Positions 844 through 58,365 of a DNA stretch of 64,000 bases are shown here, one piece after another. This stretch comes from Dehalococcoidia bacterium (GTDB lineage Bacteria; Chloroflexota; Dehalococcoidia; Dehalococcoidales; Fen-1064), in NCBI GenBank assembly GCA_011170375.1, contig DUEV01000004.1, positions 1 through 64,000 of the forward strand, given 5' to 3'. The translations under genes and the position numbers were made by a program. Every line of letters starts with the position of its first letter. Within the stretch, counting starts at the first letter, position 1. A model generated the notes under the pieces. That model made no database searches. It had not been told where the DNA came from and saw only the letters and a program-made list of their open reading frames with translations.

Positions 844-1086
844 CTACTTGCTGCCTTTCTTGAGTGCAGTATATTCAAGTATCTTGCCGATTTCAATACA
901 GTGCTGGAAGATATATTCGTCTCCAGTTAATAACGCAGTCGGAAAACAATTCGCTACTTTGCTTAGTTCGTCCCGGAAATCAAAGGCATCATAGACATGC
1001 TCACAATAAAATTCATATTCTTCCCGGATAGAGAGATGGGATAAGACTCTTGTCGCCCAATTGTTACATTTTCTTTCCTGAGATGA
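844..1086 (-). pseudogene. Possible gene remnant: open frame of about 80 codons without a start codon
   Basis: The minus-strand frame ending at the TAG at 844-846 stays open back to a TAA at 1087-1089, but contains no ATG, GTG or TTG in frame. It therefore cannot be a simple intact gene. The peptide is protein-like in composition (for example REEYEFYCEHVYDAFDFRDE and CIEIGKILEYTALKKGSK), with no low-complexity bias. Its 5' part overlaps the end of the methyltransferase gene in another frame. I do not recognise the family. Possible readings are a 5'-truncated pseudogene, a gene joined to something upstream by a frameshift, or chance. Confidence 0.3.
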
Positions 1087-1837
1087 TTACTATATAAGGG
1101 TCATCGGCCCCATTTCGTTCTAAAGCATAATCGCCGAATGATTCAACATCGCTGAAGCCACAACTGGATAACAAATTTTGAACTTCATCATCGTAAAATA
1201 TTCTCACATCTTCTTCTGCGGATATCCTATGAACTCTGCCCTCACTATCAGTAATCTCGTACTCGAAGTCCAAATGTTTCACTCCTCTTTTTTTATCTAG
1301 TGACCATTTGTCATGTTGCCTAATCGTGGCGTCCTCATGTTGATAGGTAAATTCGTCTTTATCAAAATCTTTACTTAATGAAATTCCGTTTATGAAATCA
1401 AATAAAAAGAGCCCCCCGGGCAATAAGGCATCCCTTATAGCTTTAAAGAATCTTCGGACATCTGGGTCTGTCGTCATGTAAAGAAACGTGTAGCCGAGAC
1501 AGTAAGCAACCTCGAACTTCTCTTTGATTCCCAAACCAAAGATATCCCTGCAGATAAAATCAATGGGAAGGCCTGATTTCGTTGCTTTATCGACCGCAAT
1601 AGCCAGCATATCCTGAGATTGGTCAACTCCCGTTACCTCGTAACCAAAACGTGCCATTCTGATGGCGTGCTCTCCGGTTCCGCAGCAAATATCCAAGCCT
1701 CTCTTTGCTGTAGGGATATCTCTTTTAATGAGATTATCGATAAAACTGCATTCCCTGTCGTAATCTCGGTATTGACGCATTATGTCATAATACTTTGCCA
1801 GTTCATCCTCAAACATATTCTTTGAGAAAGGTTTCAT
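1064..1837 (-). CDS. Class I SAM-dependent methyltransferase
   Basis: A 257-residue cytoplasmic methyltransferase with the Rossmann-type SAM-binding motif I at about residues 46-53 (GLDICCGTGEH) and the acidic end of strand 2 in GYEVTGVDQS, followed by a typical post-motif region (GGLFLFDFINGISLS). This places it in the Methyltransf_25/11 group of small-molecule methyltransferases; the substrate cannot be read from sequence. The start ATG at 1837 has an AGAGAAG stretch just upstream. The NUDIX gene controlled by a SAM riboswitch lies 131 bases upstream on the same strand with no obvious terminator between them, so the two may be co-transcribed. If so, a SAM-using enzyme would sit under SAM control. 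Base composition is visibly more AT-rich than in the metabolic operons further right. Confidence 0.88.
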   Translation of the reverse strand: MKPFSKNMFEDELAKYYDIMRQYRDYDRECSFIDNLIKRDIPTAKRGLDICCGTGEHAIRMARFGYEVTGVDQSQDMLAIAVDKATKSGLPIDFICRDIFGLGIKEKFEVAYCLGYTFLYMTTDPDVRRFFKAIRDALLPGGLFLFDFINGISLSKDFDKDEFTYQHEDATIRQHDKWSLDKKRGVKHLDFEYEITDSEGRVHRISAEEDVRIFYDDEVQNLLSSCGFSDVESFGDYALERNGADDPYIVIISGKKM

Positions 1838-50976: not shown

Positions 50977-52965
50977 CTACCTGCACACAGCCGCAAAGAA
51001 ATCGGCCACCTTCTGAGTCAGCTCCGCCTCAAATCCCCACCAGAAATGGTCAGCTCCGATTACCGTCTGGTACTCTTCAGAATTACGGGCTGCCTTGGCG
51101 AGCTGCTGAAACTGCTCCAGCCGTATTACCGAGTCACTACCACCCACGATGACGAGCTTCGGCTGCGAGTATTTCTCCAGTTGCTGCCAGCCCGACTCCG
51201 TCAGGGCCGGTGACACCAGCGTCAGGTAACGAACGCGCTCGTCTTCCAGGGCAACCGGTAGGGCAACACTACCACCGAAGGAATAGCCTGCCAGCCCGAC
51301 CTTTTCAGGATTTATGTTCTCCGCTGATGCCACAAAGTCCAGAGCCGCTTTAACATCATCTCGCTCGGCAACCCCACCACCGAACTGACCACCACTCCCC
51401 TCCACACCACGGAAGTTGAACCGAAGCGCCGCTATTCCCTGCCTCCCAAGCACTTCACAGATAGCCACCACGACGTTATTATGCATATTCCCGCCATAGA
51501 GAGAGTGCGGGTGGCAGACAACCACCACTGGGAAAGGCCCATCACCCTGGGGCAGGTGCCACTCACCTTCTAGGGTAATCTCTCCACAGCGGAACTCGAC
51601 ACGGCTACTATTCACTTTATTACTCGCTTTCCTGACTCGTTGTTTCTTACCCGGCCTCCATGTGTTGAGTCGGGCCACAACCTGTTTCTCATACCCCTGG
51701 TCGCCGGGCTGATAGAACTTCTTTCCCTGAAGTGAATCAGGCAGGTTCTGCTGCCCGACGAAATGCCCTTCATAATCGTGGGCATACTTGTACCCCTTGC
51801 CGTAGCCGACCTGTCTCATCAATGGTGTTACCGCATTGCGCAGGTGCAGCGGTACCGGGTCATTGGAGCCTTCTTTTACCTCAGCCTGCACCTCAGAGTA
51901 GGCCCGGTACAGGGAGTTACTCTTGGGAGATGTCGCCAGATAGACCGCCGCCTCGGCCAGAGCCAGGTTTCCCTCAGGCAAACCAATAAAGTGGACAGCC
52001 TGTTGAGCAGCCATGGCCACCACCAGTGCCTGCGGGTCGGCCATACCAACATCCTCCGAGGCAAAACGTACCAGACGACGGGCCACATAGAGAGGGTCCT
52101 CCCCCGCCTCCAGCATCCTCCCCAGCCAGTACAGAGCGGCGTCCGGGTCAGAGCCGCGCATCGACTTATGCAACGCCGATATCAGGTCGAAATGCTCCTC
52201 GCCGGCCTTGTCATAGCGCAGCATCCGTTTCTGGGCGGCGTCCTCGACAATCGGCAGGGTAACATGGCGCTTACCGCTGCGGTCAGGCGGAGCTGTCAGT
52301 ACAGCCAGCTCCACTGTGTTGAGTGCAATTCGGGCATCGTGGCTCGACATCATTATCAGGTGGGCCATTGCCTCATCGTCAACCTCGACATCCAGTTGAC
52401 CAAGCCCGCGGTCGCTATCACCCAGAGCCTTTAGAATGATGATACGTATCTCATCGTCAGTCAGCGGATTCAGTACCAGCACCCGGCACCGCGACAACAA
52501 AGGGGCATTGACCTCGAAGGAGGGGTTCTCAGTGGTGGCACCAATCAGGGTAACCGTGCCATCCTCGACAAAAGGCAGGACAGCGTCCTGCTGGGCCTTG
52601 TTGAAGCGGTGTATCTCATCGATAAACAGGATAGTCTTCTGCTGGTGGAGACTGAGGCGCTCCCTGGCCTCCTGTATTATGCGCCGTAAATCAGCCACCC
52701 CAGCACTAACGGCACTCACCGAACTGAAGTGTGAATCGGTGGTATTGGCGATGACGAAGGCCAGCGTCGTTTTGCCACTGCCCGGTGGCCCCCACAGGAT
52801 GACCGACGGAATCTGCCCGCTTTCGATGGCATTTCTGATGACATGCCCCTCCCCCACGAGGTGCTCCTGCCCAACAAAGGCATCGAGGGTAGCCGGCCTC
52901 ATCCGGGCCGCCAGGGGTGCCCCTTTGCTCATCTGTTCTTCGCGCTGACGGTCAAACATATCCAT
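50977..52965 (-). CDS. rarA: RarA/MgsA-type AAA+ ATPase fused to a C-terminal alpha/beta hydrolase
   Basis: One uninterrupted frame of 662 codons encodes two proteins' worth of domains. Residues 1 to about 445 are a complete RarA (replication-associated recombination protein): Walker A GPPGSGKTTLAF, Walker B ILFIDEIHRFNKAQQD, sensor 1 GATTENPSFEV and the C-terminal KSMRGSDPDAALYWLGRML and YKYAHDYEGHFVGQQNLPD regions. After a basic linker (RKASNKVNSSR) residues about 455-662 are a dienelactone-hydrolase-like serine hydrolase: VVVVCHPHSLYGGN, nucleophile S562 in LAGYSFGGS, Asp in GGSDSVI (about 611) and His in GADHFWWG (about 640). RarA alone is about 430-450 residues, so this is a true fusion unless the assembly lost a stop. 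The 3' end sits 24 bases from gdpd. Why a fork-remodelling ATPase carries a hydrolase is unknown. Confidence 0.9.
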   Translation of the reverse strand: MDMFDRQREEQMSKGAPLAARMRPATLDAFVGQEHLVGEGHVIRNAIESGQIPSVILWGPPGSGKTTLAFVIANTTDSHFSSVSAVSAGVADLRRIIQEARERLSLHQQKTILFIDEIHRFNKAQQDAVLPFVEDGTVTLIGATTENPSFEVNAPLLSRCRVLVLNPLTDDEIRIIILKALGDSDRGLGQLDVEVDDEAMAHLIMMSSHDARIALNTVELAVLTAPPDRSGKRHVTLPIVEDAAQKRMLRYDKAGEEHFDLISALHKSMRGSDPDAALYWLGRMLEAGEDPLYVARRLVRFASEDVGMADPQALVVAMAAQQAVHFIGLPEGNLALAEAAVYLATSPKSNSLYRAYSEVQAEVKEGSNDPVPLHLRNAVTPLMRQVGYGKGYKYAHDYEGHFVGQQNLPDSLQGKKFYQPGDQGYEKQVVARLNTWRPGKKQRVRKASNKVNSSRVEFRCGEITLEGEWHLPQGDGPFPVVVVCHPHSLYGGNMHNNVVVAICEVLGRQGIAALRFNFRGVEGSGGQFGGGVAERDDVKAALDFVASAENINPEKVGLAGYSFGGSVALPVALEDERVRYLTLVSPALTESGWQQLEKYSQPKLVIVGGSDSVIRLEQFQQLAKAARNSEEYQTVIGADHFWWGFEAELTQKVADFFAAVCR

Positions 52966-53182: not shown

Positions 53183-54382
53183 ATGGAACAGGCGTTATCC
53201 GGAATAAAGGTACTCGAATACTGTAGCTTTGTTAGTGGCCCCTACTGCAGCAAGCTCCTCGCCGACCTCGGTGCGGAGGTGATAAAGGTTGAAGAACCCG
53301 GTACCGGCGATGCAGCACGTCATAGAGGCCCCTTCCCCAATGACAGCCCCGACCCCGAACAAAGCAGCTTATTTCTCTACCTCAACACCAGCAAGCTGGG
53401 CATTACCCTGAATCTGAGAAGTCCCGCTGCTAAAAAGGTCTTTAAGGAACTGGTGAAAAACACTGATGCCCTGATAGAAGATACTTCCCCTAGCACCATG
53501 AAAGACCTCGGACTGGGCTACGATGTTCTGAAGGAGGTCAACCCCTCACTTGTCATGACCTCGATAACGCCCTACGGGCAAACAGGCCCGTATCGGGGAT
53601 ACAGGGCTCACCATCTCAATATCTACCATTCTAGCGGGCAGGCCCGGTTCTCTTATAGCATGAGTCAAGATTCCGCTCTGCCTCCGGTTAAGGGTGGTGG
53701 CTTCCTGGGTGACTATGACGCCGGGCTCAGTGGGGCTGTGGCCACACTGGCAGCACTCTTCAAACACATCCTCGGCGGCCCTGGCCAGCACATAGACGTA
53801 TCAAGGCAGGAAGCACTCATCTCACTGGACAGGATAGACATCGGTAGCTTCACCAACGACATCTCAATGGTCGAGCGGCGAAGAGGCATGCTCGGTGGCC
53901 TTATGCGATGTAAAGACGGCTATGTAGTTGTCCTCGCCCCCCAGCAGCACCAGTGGGAAGCCATGATGAACATGATGGGTAACCCGGAGTGGTCTAAGGG
54001 TGAGAAGTGCAAGGACGAGTTTGCCCGCAGTGAGCACGCCAGCGAGCTTCAACCACTCATCAATGAGTGGATGCTCCAGCGCACCAAGAAGGAGATATAC
54101 CACCTCGGTCAGAGCTTTGGCTGCCCGGCAGCACCGGTCAATTCAACCGCCGATGTCTTCAAATCGCCACAGATGAAAGAGCGGGGGTTCTTTGCTGACA
54201 TTGTCCACTCTAGAGCAGGTAGGCTCAGCTACCCATCGGCTTCGTATAAACTTTCGGAGACCCCCTGGCAGGCAAACCGTGCCGCCCCACTCTTGGGTGA
54301 GCATAATCAAGAAATCTATTGCGGGCGACTGGGTCTCTCCGACCAAGAACTGGCGGAAATGAAAGCATCAGGCGTTATCTAG
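53183..54382 (+). CDS. CaiB/BaiF family CoA-transferase (first of a pair)
   Basis: A 399-residue family III CoA-transferase, moving CoA between carboxylic acids by an aspartyl-thioester mechanism. Family segments: IKVLEYCSFVSGPYCSKLLADLGAEVIKVE at the N-terminus, GYDVLKEVNPSLVMTSITPYGQTGP, the probable catalytic Asp in GDYDAGLSG (about residue 177) and PAAPVNSTADVFKSPQMKERGFF near the end. The start ATG is at 53183. The second CaiB-type gene follows after 12 bases, so the two products may form a heteromer. Substrate unknown; no acyl-CoA dehydrogenase gene is adjacent. Confidence 0.9.
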   Translation: MEQALSGIKVLEYCSFVSGPYCSKLLADLGAEVIKVEEPGTGDAARHRGPFPNDSPDPEQSSLFLYLNTSKLGITLNLRSPAAKKVFKELVKNTDALIEDTSPSTMKDLGLGYDVLKEVNPSLVMTSITPYGQTGPYRGYRAHHLNIYHSSGQARFSYSMSQDSALPPVKGGGFLGDYDAGLSGAVATLAALFKHILGGPGQHIDVSRQEALISLDRIDIGSFTNDISMVERRRGMLGGLMRCKDGYVVVLAPQQHQWEAMMNMMGNPEWSKGEKCKDEFARSEHASELQPLINEWMLQRTKKEIYHLGQSFGCPAAPVNSTADVFKSPQMKERGFFADIVHSRAGRLSYPSASYKLSETPWQANRAAPLLGEHNQEIYCGRLGLSDQELAEMKASGVI

Positions 54383-54394
54383 GACAGAAAGGTC

Positions 54395-55615
54395 ATGAAT
54401 ATGGAAGAGTACCCTCTTGATGGAATAAGAATAGTCGACTTTACCTGGGCATGGGCCGGGCCCTACGCCAACCTCTTACTGGCACTCCTGGGGGCCGAGG
54501 TTATAAAAGTGGAGAGCCTTAAACGACTCGACCACACCCGGCTCCGCTCCCTGATGACCGGACCTACCATGGGCAGCCCGGACCAGTCGACTGTTTTCAA
54601 CGACATTAACCTGAACAAGCTCAGCCTTACCCTCAACCTGACCAAGCCCAGGGCCATCGAAGTTGCGAAGGAACTGGTCAAAAAGGCCGATGTAGTAATC
54701 CAGAACATGCGTCCCGGGGTGATGGACAGGCTGGGTCTCGGCTACGAAGCCCTTAGAGAAATCAAGCCTGACATTATCATGCTGTCATCGTCAGCGCTGG
54801 GCTCAACCGGGCCGGAGGGAAACTATTCCGGTTATGCCCCGACCTTTGCCGCCATGGGCGGAATGGCCTATATTTCAGGTTACCCCGATAAGGAACCCAG
54901 TACGCTCAGCGGCGCTATCGATACCAGGGTGGGAACAACCTCAGCCTTCGCCATACTGGCCGCCCTGATTTACCGCCAGCGTACCGGTAAGGGACAGAAC
55001 ATCGACCTTTCGTCGTCAGAGGCTATCAGTTGCCTCATGGGCGAGGCGTTCCTTGACTACTCCATGAATCAAAGAGTCAAGGAACGCGATGGTAACGATG
55101 ATGACGTTATGGCCCCGCACGGCTGCTATCCATGCCAGGGTGAAAACTGCTGGGTAACTATCGCGGTATCGACCGAGGACGAATGGCAGGCATTCTGTAA
55201 AGCCCTTGGCTCTCCCGACTGGACCGAGGATAGCCGGTTTGCCGATGCCCCGAGTCGCCAGCAGAACCGCGACGAATTACACCGGTTACTCTCCGGGTGG
55301 ACGATAAAACATACCGACTACGAGGTGACTGAAGTCCTGCAAGGCGCCGGCGTGGCTGCCATCCCCACCCTCAGAGGCGATATGGTCTCCAAAGACCCCC
55401 ACATCAAAGAACGGGGCCTGTTCGAAGAGATAGAGCACCCTGAGCTGGGAAAGAGGTTGGTGGTAGGCCCACCCTGGAGATTGTCCACCACCCCGGCAAA
55501 AGCCCCCCGCCCGGCACCGCTGATAGGTGAGCATAACCAGTATGTGCTCGGCGAGCTATTGGGCATGGCACAGAGCGAAATCGACCGGCTAATCGAAGAG
55601 CAGGTGGTATATTAA
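54395..55615 (+). CDS. CaiB/BaiF family CoA-transferase (second of a pair)
   Basis: A 406-residue family III CoA-transferase, distinct in sequence from its neighbour (IRIVDFTWAWAGPYANLLLALLGAEVIKVE; GYEALREIKPDIIMLSSSALG; catalytic Asp probably D176 in GAIDTRVGTTSA; GVAAIPTLRGDMVSKDPHIKERGLF). The FTWAWAGP motif is typical of the L-carnitine/succinyl-type transferases of anaerobic Chloroflexota. ATG at 54395, with AAAGG upstream; ATG at 54401 is an alternative. Its stop overlaps the end of the converging nuclease gene by four bases. Confidence 0.9.
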   Translation: MNMEEYPLDGIRIVDFTWAWAGPYANLLLALLGAEVIKVESLKRLDHTRLRSLMTGPTMGSPDQSTVFNDINLNKLSLTLNLTKPRAIEVAKELVKKADVVIQNMRPGVMDRLGLGYEALREIKPDIIMLSSSALGSTGPEGNYSGYAPTFAAMGGMAYISGYPDKEPSTLSGAIDTRVGTTSAFAILAALIYRQRTGKGQNIDLSSSEAISCLMGEAFLDYSMNQRVKERDGNDDDVMAPHGCYPCQGENCWVTIAVSTEDEWQAFCKALGSPDWTEDSRFADAPSRQQNRDELHRLLSGWTIKHTDYEVTEVLQGAGVAAIPTLRGDMVSKDPHIKERGLFEEIEHPELGKRLVVGPPWRLSTTPAKAPRPAPLIGEHNQYVLGELLGMAQSEIDRLIEEQVVY

Positions 55616-57108
55616 GCTATATCATCCAGCCGCTGGTGCAGCCTGACCATCGCCAGCGTGTCCAGCTTACAGTACTCGAGCAGGTTCCTCTTCGTGGTTT
55701 CCGGGTCCGGGTCTTTACCCAGGGCCATGTAGGCAAAGGCCGCTGAAGCCGAGTCGCCATCACCTATGGCTAGGTCATCGTAGGACATCTCCGGTACAAG
55801 AACAGGAATCAAATCAATATCCGTTATCTCAAAGATATCGCTGGTCATCTCTGAAGCCATAACAGGGTAAGTCCGCTTCACCGAAGTGCTACCACAAAAG
55901 TCCGGGTGGTAATAATTCCGCCTGATAATTGCCTCCAGGTCCACAATACGGTCTGTCAAATCTAATAATCTGTCGGAAAGGTCGGGGAACAGCCTCGCCA
56001 GGCTATTAATAACAGCCTTTTCAAAATTGGAGTATGCGATAATGCTGCCCTCTTCTCCCAGGTCGCTGATGAGGTTTTGCGCAAGTTCCTCCCGGCAGTC
56101 CCTGACCGGGTCAGCCAGGTATTCAAAGTGACCGTCAATAACACCGACCTCAGGGCACCTGTGTATCGAGTATTGAGTAGGAATCTGGGTATAGGGCGCG
56201 ATATCAGGGTACAGTGGAATCGCCGTCATCACCGTCTCGAAATCGAGATAGTACGCCGGCCACTTTATTGTTGATAGCTCGTCTCTCAGTCCTTCACCGA
56301 TGAAGGTCTCATTTCTCCGCACGCAGTCGGTCACCCTGGCCTGGTATTCAGTCAGGGAGAATCCCTCGGGTATATCCTCGACACGGTTGATTCCGAGCGC
56401 CAACAGCGCATCAAACCTCGCCTCATTCAGCCGCGGCAGGTTAAAGAGGTGGTTTTTAATATCCTTCCCCACACACTCCCCGAAAAGCTCACACTGGCGG
56501 CAGTCGTAGATTAGTTGTGGTTCCGGCATTATCGGTGCCCTGGTAATCTCCTCGATTTCCTGCCAGACTGGCTCTAGCTCCTCGACCCTTTGCAGCACCT
56601 CGTCGGTATGGTCTATCTCTACGAAAAGCTTTTCGTCCGGCATTCCCAGCCGATAGTCACGTGACACGAGCAGCAGTGAGACGCGGCAGATATTGAGGCC
56701 ACACTTAGATGTGACCATCGTTGTATAGGCCATGTCATCAATGAAGTCATCCCTGTCGTTGGTAGCTGATTTCACCTCGACCAGGTGCCACCCCTCGTCT
56801 GTCCTTTCGAGCACATCCGCCCTGGCCGCGAAGCCATCGATAAGAAAAGCACCCTCAAAGACTACTGGCACAGAGGCATCGGCCAGTGCCCTTTTCGTCT
56901 CCTCCAGGGCCACCGACATATTAGGGGACGTTAATCGCCCACCGGGGTAGAGACTCCTTGCCCGCCGCCCGACCTCCACCCCCTGCTCCATACGGAACCT
57001 CTCACCCAGGGTTAGTTCGGCCCGGAAGTTTTCATCGCACCGTGATACCCATCCCAGTACAGGACAGGACAGGGCATTCAGGAATATCTGCTTTGATACG
57101 TTCCTCAT
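55612..57108 (-). CDS. Cas4/RecB-like nuclease with C-terminal DEDD-type exonuclease region (DUF2779-like)
   Basis: A 498-residue protein of two nuclease-like halves. N-terminal half: SKQIFLNALSCPVLGW (first Fe-S cysteine), PD-(D/E)xK core FAARADVLER...WHLVEVKSATND, and the late cysteine triad YDCRQCELFGECVG, i.e. the layout of Cas4/AddB-type Fe-S nucleases. C-terminal half: YYLDFETVMTAIP, IAYSNFEKAVI and YCKLDTLAMVRL, which look like the DxE...D motifs of a DEDD (DnaQ-like) 3'-5' exonuclease fold. The start at 57108 overlaps the stop of the upstream AlbA_2 gene as ATGA and gives the family N-terminus; a longer frame would lie inside the neighbour. The gene pair is therefore translationally coupled. 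Role in DNA/RNA degradation is likely; a defence role is inference. Confidence 0.85.
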   Translation of the reverse strand: MRNVSKQIFLNALSCPVLGWVSRCDENFRAELTLGERFRMEQGVEVGRRARSLYPGGRLTSPNMSVALEETKRALADASVPVVFEGAFLIDGFAARADVLERTDEGWHLVEVKSATNDRDDFIDDMAYTTMVTSKCGLNICRVSLLLVSRDYRLGMPDEKLFVEIDHTDEVLQRVEELEPVWQEIEEITRAPIMPEPQLIYDCRQCELFGECVGKDIKNHLFNLPRLNEARFDALLALGINRVEDIPEGFSLTEYQARVTDCVRRNETFIGEGLRDELSTIKWPAYYLDFETVMTAIPLYPDIAPYTQIPTQYSIHRCPEVGVIDGHFEYLADPVRDCREELAQNLISDLGEEGSIIAYSNFEKAVINSLARLFPDLSDRLLDLTDRIVDLEAIIRRNYYHPDFCGSTSVKRTYPVMASEMTSDIFEITDIDLIPVLVPEMSYDDLAIGDGDSASAAFAYMALGKDPDPETTKRNLLEYCKLDTLAMVRLHQRLDDIA

Positions 57109-57722
57109 AATCTCAGTGTTCTCCGAGTCATTGCTATTTGATTTATTAACTGTTTCCATTCTGGAAGCGCATTGATATCGACCTTCACACAACAAATGGT
57201 TTCCGCACTTTCAGTTCTTATATATACATCGCCTTTAGTGAGAATAAAGTCTCCTTTTTTAGATTGAGATTCCCAATCATCAGTACAAACAAACGGATGC
57301 TCCTGAAACGGATATACACGAATTATTGGATACTTAATCCCTGCATATTCCTTTTTGTATATCTTGACCTTGACTCTATCTTGGCCCCTTAGGTATTTTC
57401 TCATGTGGTTGCAAAACTTCGTTTGTTCATATGATGCGACGATTTCCTCTGTAAGTCCCGGATCAGGGGCATAGCTTTTATCTGACTGCTCTGCATAACC
57501 TATAACTATATGCCCTCCACCTGAATTTGCATACCCCAGAACATGCTTAACTAATTTAGCAGTAAAATCTGTTCCTTTATCAAACTTGACAGCAGACTTA
57601 TATTCCACCTCTTTACACTCTGTTGTGCACTCCAGTATTTCCTTTAAGTACCCACTATCTTCCCACTGGAGGCGTTCATCTTCTTTCTGTAGGATTTCGT
57701 CTTCTCTTTCGAGCATGCGCAC
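57105..57722 (-). CDS. Schlafen/AlbA_2-domain putative nucleic-acid-binding protein
   Basis: A 205-residue protein whose centre matches the AlbA_2 (divergent AAA_4, Schlafen-type) domain: ECKEVEYKSAVKF (conserved E-x-K) followed by HVLGYANSGGGHIVIGYAE, the NSGGG-x-I-x-x-G signature. The first about 30 residues are a charged helix (EREDEILQKEDERLQWEDS) and the C-terminus carries DVYIRTESAETICC. AlbA_2 domains bind nucleic acid and occur in transcription regulators and in antiviral proteins. Local base composition is clearly more AT-rich than in the flanking metabolic genes, a possible sign of transfer. Start is GTG at 57722 (ATG at 57716 possible). Its stop overlaps the start of the nuclease gene, so both should be made together. 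Confidence 0.82.
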   Translation of the reverse strand: MRMLEREDEILQKEDERLQWEDSGYLKEILECTTECKEVEYKSAVKFDKGTDFTAKLVKHVLGYANSGGGHIVIGYAEQSDKSYAPDPGLTEEIVASYEQTKFCNHMRKYLRGQDRVKVKIYKKEYAGIKYPIIRVYPFQEHPFVCTDDWESQSKKGDFILTKGDVYIRTESAETICCVKVDINALPEWKQLINQIAMTRRTLRL

Positions 57723-57795
57723 ATTACCTTAATGAAGACTATAAGATTCGTCGATAACATCTATTTAGGTGAATGTTGAATTACCTTAACTACAT

Positions 57796-58365
57796 CTACC
57801 CAATGATTATGTCATCTAACCGCCGCTTGGGCACGTGATGGACGCTCTCAGCATCACGCCAGTAGCGGACATCACCCCCCAGCTCGAGTTCTTCAAGCAC
57901 TACCTCTTCCTTGGGCTTGCCCAACGCCAGCACCAGTAGTATCTCATATCGCTCCGGGATATCGAGTGACTTCTGTAGTTCGTCCCTCTCTATCGAGGAG
58001 ATGATGCAGCCTCCCAGACCCCTATCGACAGCACCCAGCATGATACTCTGGGCCGCTATCCCGTGGTCGACGCCAAAGGAATCACTTATGGCCCTATCAC
58101 CAAGAATAATAATGTAAGCTGAAGGACGCTCCCCCTGAGGTGGGCCAGGCCAGGTCATGAGAGCGCCTGCCCAGGCCAGCGTGGAGAACACCTTGGCATT
58201 GCTCTCCGGAGTACAGGACAATAAGTATTTCAGCGGCTGGCGGTTCGACCCTGATGCCGAACAACGCGCCAGGTCAACCAGCTCCCTCAGGGTTTCACGC
58301 TCTAATACAACATCCTCGTGGAACCTCCGATAGCTCCGGTTTTTCAATATCAAGTCTTTTATCAT
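57796..58365 (-). CDS. Nitroreductase family protein
   Basis: A 189-residue FMN-dependent oxidoreductase of the nitroreductase fold: the FMN-phosphate arginine motif NRSYRRF at residues about 9-15, SASGSNRQPLKYLL (about 37-50), the central DHGIAAQSIMLGAVDRGLGGCII and LVLALGKPKEE at the C-terminus. Substrate unknown. ATG at 58365 with GGCGGAAGG upstream. A lone gene between the nuclease pair and the MEMO locus. Confidence 0.9.
   Translation of the reverse strand: MIKDLILKNRSYRRFHEDVVLERETLRELVDLARCSASGSNRQPLKYLLSCTPESNAKVFSTLAWAGALMTWPGPPQGERPSAYIIILGDRAISDSFGVDHGIAAQSIMLGAVDRGLGGCIISSIERDELQKSLDIPERYEILLVLALGKPKEEVVLEELELGGDVRYWRDAESVHHVPKRRLDDIIIG

What the first reader, a model, noticed from the sequence alone, without database searches (positions are those of the whole stretch)
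55612..57722. Coupled AlbA_2 (Schlafen-type) protein and Cas4-like/DEDD nuclease: candidate defence module
The two genes overlap by ATGA. One has an AlbA_2 nucleic-acid-binding domain; the other combines an Fe-S PD-(D/E)xK nuclease and a DEDD-type exonuclease region. The first gene is noticeably AT-rich against its neighbours, suggesting transfer. Pairing a Schlafen-family sensor with a nuclease is a pattern used in antiviral systems, but I know of no named system with this pair.
Basis: partly seen in the sequence, partly recalled or inferred. Interest (0 to 1): 0.75.

Follow-up and report, generated by a model that had tools for sequence, protein, structure and literature searches.

The report
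Schlafen-like gene paired with two-domain nuclease
A small Schlafen-like nucleic-acid-binding protein and a nuclease with two cutting domains are encoded as an overlapping gene pair that recurs in an unrelated stretch of another bacterium's genome; relatives of the nuclease often sit inside known anti-virus operons, so the pair is probably a rare, untested defence module.

Summary
Observation confirmed. AlbA_2 (57716/57722-57105, -) and DUF2779 (57108-55612, -) overlap by ATGA. Models (pLDDT 89) show a Schlafen/SAMD9-type lobe with a Schlafen-spaced E-E-E triad, and a Cas4-like Fe-S domain plus a proofreading-type exonuclease with intact active sites. The nuclease architecture was already described (RNase H-like family F.17).

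Interpretation partly supported. For: the same pair (58%/63% identity) recurs in a Dehalococcoidia MAG (L098) with no shared flanking genes; one genome has a DUF2779-AlbA_2 fusion, and another a different AlbA_2 gene just downstream; nuclease relatives sit against SIR2-HerA, Lamassu, type IIG and Qat genes or WYL regulators.

Against a fixed two-part system: 122 of 126 non-redundant DUF2779 loci lack an adjacent AlbA_2. In the window's own clade the nuclease is a syntenic resident, and AlbA_2 is absent from two of three genus members (one keeps a 3' relic). AlbA_2 has GC3 0.345 against the nuclease's 0.639, so it arrived later or has ameliorated less. This locus is not in a defence island.

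Best reading: an auxiliary defence-type nuclease with an optional Schlafen-like partner. Antiviral activity is inferred, not shown.

The parts
57105..57716 (-). AlbA_2 / Schlafen-core-like protein, 203 aa (ATG 57716; GTG 57722 possible). Putative carboxylate triad E33-E38-E76.
   Evidence: Pfam SLFN_AlbA_2 1.5e-7; 58% identical to L098 AlbA_2; model pLDDT 89 matching SLFN13/SAMD9; triad
55612..57108 (-). DUF2779 nuclease, 498 aa: Cas4-like Fe-S PD-(D/E)XK domain (1-221) plus DEDDy-type RNase H-fold exonuclease (282-498)
   Evidence: Pfam DUF2779 1.1e-36, Cas_Cas4 6.5e-5; structure; invariant catalytic residues
57105..57108 (-). ATGA start/stop overlap. The last few AlbA_2 codons are read from the nuclease leader (ACTGAGNNNATG, shared with G010 and G002), so the overlap looks like the product of a joining event.
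57717..57776 (-). 60 bp upstream of AlbA_2, 36/60 identical to the same stretch in L098: the conserved unit includes its leader and Shine-Dalgarno sequence
   Evidence: binomial P 2e-7
57796..58365 (-). Nitroreductase: conserved left neighbour of the nuclease in genera g1 and g3 (flank, not part of the module)
50977..52965 (-). RarA-type AAA ATPase fused to an alpha/beta hydrolase: conserved right neighbour block (flank)

Best explanation
The DUF2779 gene encodes an auxiliary, horizontally spread nuclease of the defence-island kind. A Cas4-like Fe-S domain would process DNA ends or single strands, and a DEDDy 3'-5' exonuclease would trim or degrade the product. The small AlbA_2 protein is an optional, add-on Schlafen-type partner translated just ahead of it. 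It most likely binds (or, as a metal-dependent RNase, cuts) RNA or DNA of an invader and so triggers or restricts the nuclease. SHOWN: both folds, intact catalytic residues, recurrence of the pair in an unrelated context, independent AlbA_2-DUF2779 linkages, defence-gene neighbours of relatives, loss or absence of AlbA_2 in close relatives. INFERRED: physical partnership, substrates, antiviral role, and that the copy in this window is active.
For: Same pair with 58%/63% identity in L098, where no other gene matches the window's flanks; 36/60 identity of the upstream leader. DUF2779-AlbA_2 fusion in G138 and a different AlbA_2 directly downstream of DUF2779 in G010. Relatives of the nuclease beside a type IIG RM gene (4-bp overlap, E 1e-266), HerA (2-bp gap, E 9e-252), SIR2+HerA twice, Cap4+LmuB, QatC with a TatD-family gene between it and DUF2779, a NACHT gene, and WYL regulators. 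Patchy distribution: 61/393 class genomes, archaea to Planctomycetota, and plasmids. AlbA_2 matches the SAMD9 tRNase domain and SLFN13 (Z 9.4 and 8.0; unrelated folds at most 4.5), with the E205/E210/D248 spacing of SLFN13 (5 and 38).
Against: AlbA_2 is next to or fused with DUF2779 in only 4 of 126 non-redundant loci. In the window's clade the nuclease persists without it, with all catalytic residues intact. This locus is not in a defence island: its neighbours are Memo/AMMECR1, nitroreductase and RarA, and the other window genes hit few PADLOC models. The near-versus-far PADLOC comparison did not separate immediate neighbours from genes 4.5 kb or more away. PADLOC has no model for AlbA_2 of this type, and only weak Cas4 hits for the nuclease.
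Confidence: 0.5

Rival explanations
1. Independent neighbours: the nuclease is a self-sufficient resident gene, and the AlbA_2 gene (a travelling accessory gene that usually has a different partner) landed next to it. The ATGA overlap is an accident of the joining deletion.
For: AlbA_2 relatives elsewhere are either fused to a ~230-aa domain or followed by a separate 213-240 aa gene with start/stop overlap; that partner is missing here. GC3 0.345 against 0.639. The AlbA_2 reading frame ends inside the ancestral nuclease leader. Same-genus G001 and G002 lack the gene.
Against: The same short AlbA_2 without its usual partner stands directly before the same nuclease subfamily in L098, with a shared leader. 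Two coincidences of that kind are unlikely, and fusion and adjacency also occur with other AlbA_2 types (G138, G010).
Confidence: 0.27
2. A DNA-repair or end-processing module of ordinary cell metabolism rather than immunity: the nuclease acts like RecB/Dna2/AddB-type resection enzymes, with the AlbA_2 protein as nucleic-acid-binding helper.
For: Exonuclease-type active sites; location near RarA in g1 and g3; SbcD/SMC-like genes downstream in L098; vertical retention in g1 and g3. A DUF2779 transposon mutant of Mycoplasma bovis is listed with other nucleic-acid-metabolism mutants in a screen for survival in cell culture (PMC7373297).
Against: Patchy presence even within the family and class, horizontal spread across phyla and domains, plasmid copies, and linkage to restriction, SIR2-HerA, Lamassu and Qat genes.
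Confidence: 0.15
3. A decaying leftover: AlbA_2 here is the truncated front half of a longer AlbA_2 protein on its way out, as in G002 where only about 50 bp remain.
For: The nearest long relative (G036, about 49% identical) continues about 230 aa further; relic in G002.
Against: The frame is intact over 203 aa with the triad kept, and the equally short L098 version has its own stop codon. Codon positions 1 and 2 are more conserved than position 3 between the two (0.70/0.72/0.52), as in a protein under selection.
Confidence: 0.08

Closest known systems
DUF2779 / family F.17 of the RNase H-like superfamily (PF11074; Mollicute UU173 family)
   Same: Same C-terminal exonuclease domain and same N-terminal DUF83/Cas4-like domain, a combination described in PMC3985635
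   Different: No partner gene or defence context was described there; here the gene follows an AlbA_2 gene
Solo-Cas4 and Cas4 of CRISPR adaptation modules
   Same: Fe-S PD-(D/E)XK fold, four Cys, Z 13 to 7mi5
   Different: No cas1/cas2 alongside in this window; carries an extra DEDDy exonuclease domain
Schlafen / SAMD9 tRNase domain and bacterial Schlafen RNases of defence loci
   Same: AlbA_2 lobe, Z 8.0-9.4, three carboxylates at Schlafen spacing
   Different: Single small lobe, third acid is Glu instead of Asp; no HATPase/wHTH tail such as described for BREX-linked Schlafens (PMC12839542)
AlbA_2 plus ~236-aa gene pairs (e.g. G021 beside Shedu SduA, G118, G582, G521)
   Same: Same AlbA_2 family, short form, operon with start/stop overlap
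   Different: The second gene there is an unrelated 213-240 aa protein (the one scanned has no Pfam hit); here it is the DUF2779 nuclease
Known defence operons that include a DUF2779 gene next door (SIR2-HerA, Lamassu, Qat, type IIG RM)
   Same: Same nuclease family directly beside them
   Different: None of their core genes is present at the window locus

Membership tests
Pfam SLFN_AlbA_2 (PF04326) | score above the curated cut-off | tested here: met
   32.3 bits against cut-off 25.3
Schlafen-type RNase | Schlafen-core fold | tested here: met
   SLFN13 Z 8.0, SAMD9 tRNase Z 9.4, unrelated folds 4.5 or lower
Schlafen-type RNase | three catalytic carboxylates (E205/E210/D248 of rat SLFN13) | tested here: met
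   E33, E38, E76 with the same spacing 5 and 38; third position is Glu
Schlafen-type RNase | RNA cleavage | not testable with these tools
   needs purified protein
DUF2779 (PF11074) | score above the curated cut-off | tested here: met
   126 bits against 23.3
Cas4 (CRISPR adaptation) | Cas4 fold, DEK triad and four Cys | tested here: met
Cas4 (CRISPR adaptation) | cas1/cas2 next to the gene | tested here: not met
   neighbours are nitroreductase, Memo/AMMECR1, CoA-transferases and RarA
Known anti-phage system in PADLOC-DB 2.0.0 | both proteins hit models of one system | tested here: not met
   AlbA_2: no hit; nuclease: Cas4 models only, E 2.4e-6 at best
Conserved two-gene AlbA_2-DUF2779 unit | same pair in an unrelated genomic context | tested here: met
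   L098
Conserved two-gene AlbA_2-DUF2779 unit | pair kept together in most relatives | tested here: not met
   4 of 126 non-redundant DUF2779 loci; absent in G001, relic in G002

The most novel reading that the evidence does not exclude
DUF2779 nucleases are a general-purpose immune nuclease that is plugged into many defence operons, and AlbA_2-DUF2779 is a minimal two-protein system in which a Schlafen-like RNase or sensor senses or cuts invader RNA and licenses a Cas4/DEDD DNase.
Probability: 0.25. Interest if true: 0.75.

Novelty: new variant of a known kind. Interest (0 to 1): 0.52.

Why it matters
DUF2779 is a widely spread nuclease family without an assigned function, and a search of 5.39 million open papers for its name gave six hits; the passages read said nothing of a role in immunity. 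Its repeated position against SIR2-HerA, Lamassu, Qat, type IIG RM and WYL genes gives a concrete role to test. The rare AlbA_2 pairing and fusion point to a possible regulator or co-effector with the fold of animal antiviral Schlafens and SAMD9.

Tried and rejected
(1) Exclusively chance adjacency: rejected as the sole reading because of L098, G138 and G010. (2) CRISPR Cas4: rejected, no cas1/cas2 nearby. (3) AlbA_2 as a broken front half of a long protein: considered, but the same short form with its own stop codon is in L098. (4) Near-versus-far PADLOC test on 88 adjacent and 88 distant genes: both sets hold defence genes (111 and 161 families hit) against 8 families for 52 window genes. 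This suggests islands but does not single out immediate neighbours, and family counts are inflated by overlapping models. (5) Viral contigs: the AlbA_2 subfamily was not found; DUF2779 was found in 10 contigs, one at 45% (L167); no phage GenBank record. (6) Plasmid 'ATP-binding' proteins upstream of DUF2779 turned out to be NACHT, HATPase and AAA proteins, not AlbA_2. (9) PDB sequence searches gave no meaningful hit for either protein.

Full report
What is there. AlbA_2 ends at 57105, the nuclease begins at ATG 57108, and they share ATGA. The better AlbA_2 start is ATG 57716, 10 bases after AAGG; L098 has the same start and leader. Pfam gives SLFN_AlbA_2 (1.5e-7) for the first, and DUF2779 (1.1e-36) plus Cas_Cas4 (6.5e-5) for the second. 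PADLOC has no model for the first and only weak Cas4 hits for the second.

Structures. An AlphaFold model of the nuclease from 18 homologues (pLDDT 89) matches Cas4 (7mi5_A, Z 13.0, residues 1-221), and family B polymerase, ExoI and Pol III epsilon exonuclease domains (Z 12-15, residues 282-498). Catalytic residues of both domains and the Fe-S cysteines are present (C15 nearly invariant, the rest invariant). This architecture is already described as family F.17 of the RNase H-like superfamily, with a DUF83 domain (PMC3985635). The AlbA_2 model (pLDDT 89) matches the SAMD9 tRNase domain (Z 9.4), SLFN13 (8.0) and other Schlafens, with unrelated folds at 4.5 or below. E33, E38 and E76 have the same spacing as E205, E210 and D248 of rat SLFN13, where mutating any of the three diminished activity (PMC5862951).

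Is the pair real? In the genus, G001 and G002 carry the same block (Memo/AMMECR1, nitroreductase, DUF2779, RarA) without AlbA_2, and so does the sister genus g3. In G002 about 50 bp ahead of the nuclease match the 3' end of the window's AlbA_2 gene, and a pyrophosphatase gene takes the rest of its place. So in this lineage the nuclease is resident and AlbA_2 is optional. Elsewhere, L098 (WJOY01000012.1, a Dehalococcoidia MAG) has a 200-aa AlbA_2 (58% identical) five bases ahead of a DUF2779 gene (63%), sharing 36 of 60 bases upstream and no other gene with the window's flanks. The L098 nuclease is sister to the g1+g3 clade (support 88/95). G138 has DUF2779 and AlbA_2 fused in one 667-aa protein, and G010 has another AlbA_2 type directly downstream. 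Among 28 within-genome AlbA_2-DUF2779 pairs, 3 are adjacent or fused against 0.030 expected; leaving the window out, 2 against 0.029, P about 4e-4. Clustering of both families in defence islands would by itself raise the expectation, so this is not proof of partnership. Only 4 of 126 non-redundant DUF2779 loci have an AlbA_2.

How the overlap arose. AlbA_2 relatives usually continue into, or are followed with a start/stop overlap by, a second ~213-240 aa part. Here and in L098 that part is missing and DUF2779 stands in its place. The last codons of the window's AlbA_2 run through the leader ACTGAGNNNATG that also precedes the nuclease in G010 and G002. With GC3 of 0.345 against 0.639 (both AT-rich in L098: 0.288 and 0.371), the simplest reading is that AlbA_2 came later to a resident nuclease, or was re-acquired. 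The tree alone would also allow an old pair with repeated loss.

Defence context of the nuclease family. Relatives at 39-63% identity sit beside a type IIG RM gene (L071, 4-bp overlap), HerA (L096, 2-bp gap), SIR2 and HerA (L097, L106), Cap4 nuclease and LmuB (L116), SbcD-like and SMC-like genes (L098), Mrr_cat/TPR (L094) and NOV_C (L101). On plasmids the family follows an operon with QatC and a TatD-family gene, follows a NACHT gene, or neighbours WYL regulators, which are also the most recurrent neighbour overall (9 of 126 loci). Half of the loci (60 of 116) have no close same-strand neighbour at all. The near-versus-far PADLOC test did not single out immediate neighbours, and the window itself is not an island.

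Mechanism. Most likely the nuclease is an auxiliary DNA-degrading enzyme of immune type, with Cas4-like end or ssDNA processing and 3'-5' trimming, and the Schlafen-like protein is a nucleic-acid-binding or RNA-cutting partner made just before it. Physical contact, substrate and antiviral effect are inferred. The novelty is the pairing and the breadth of defence linkage, not the domains.

Noticed in passing
L067:7233-9236 (G138): Natural fusion of a DUF2779 nuclease with a C-terminal AlbA_2 domain in one 667-aa protein.
   Followed up: partly
L040:8259-9443 (G010 = L087, JADHXC010000007.1): A different, 394-aa AlbA_2 protein directly downstream of the syntenic DUF2779 nuclease.
   Followed up: partly
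L043:5791-8511 (G021), L191, L193, L190, L059, L061: AlbA_2 genes (~205-240 aa) followed with start/stop overlap by a separate 213-240 aa gene; elsewhere fused as one 437-451 aa protein; the G021 second gene has no Pfam hit. In G021 the pair lies next to a Shedu (SduA) gene.
   Followed up: partly
L180:3943-10282 (Aliarcobacter pACRY43158): QatC gene, TatD-family gene, DUF2779 nuclease and SF1-like helicase in one tight row, as if the nuclease were an add-on to Qat.
   Followed up: no
L119, L148, L174, L179, L181 and others: WYL-domain regulator genes are the most recurrent neighbour of DUF2779 nucleases across phyla (9 of 126 loci).
   Followed up: partly
L036:6073-6594 (G002): An inorganic pyrophosphatase-like gene stands where the window has AlbA_2, between its Shine-Dalgarno-like stretch and its 3' relic.
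   Followed up: partly
window 53183-55615: Two tandem family III CoA-transferase genes, absent from the same place in G001, G002 and g3, are inserted between DUF2779 and RarA: both flanks of the nuclease vary between close relatives.
   Followed up: partly
window 50977-52965: RarA/MgsA-type AAA ATPase with a C-terminal alpha/beta-hydrolase-like extension (662 aa), conserved in the family.
   Followed up: no
window 1064-1837: Second most AT-rich gene of the window (GC 0.404), methyltransferase-like; possibly another recent arrival.
   Followed up: no
L167 (IMGVR_UViG_3300002988_000063): A 45%-identical DUF2779 nuclease lies on a contig classed as viral.
   Followed up: no
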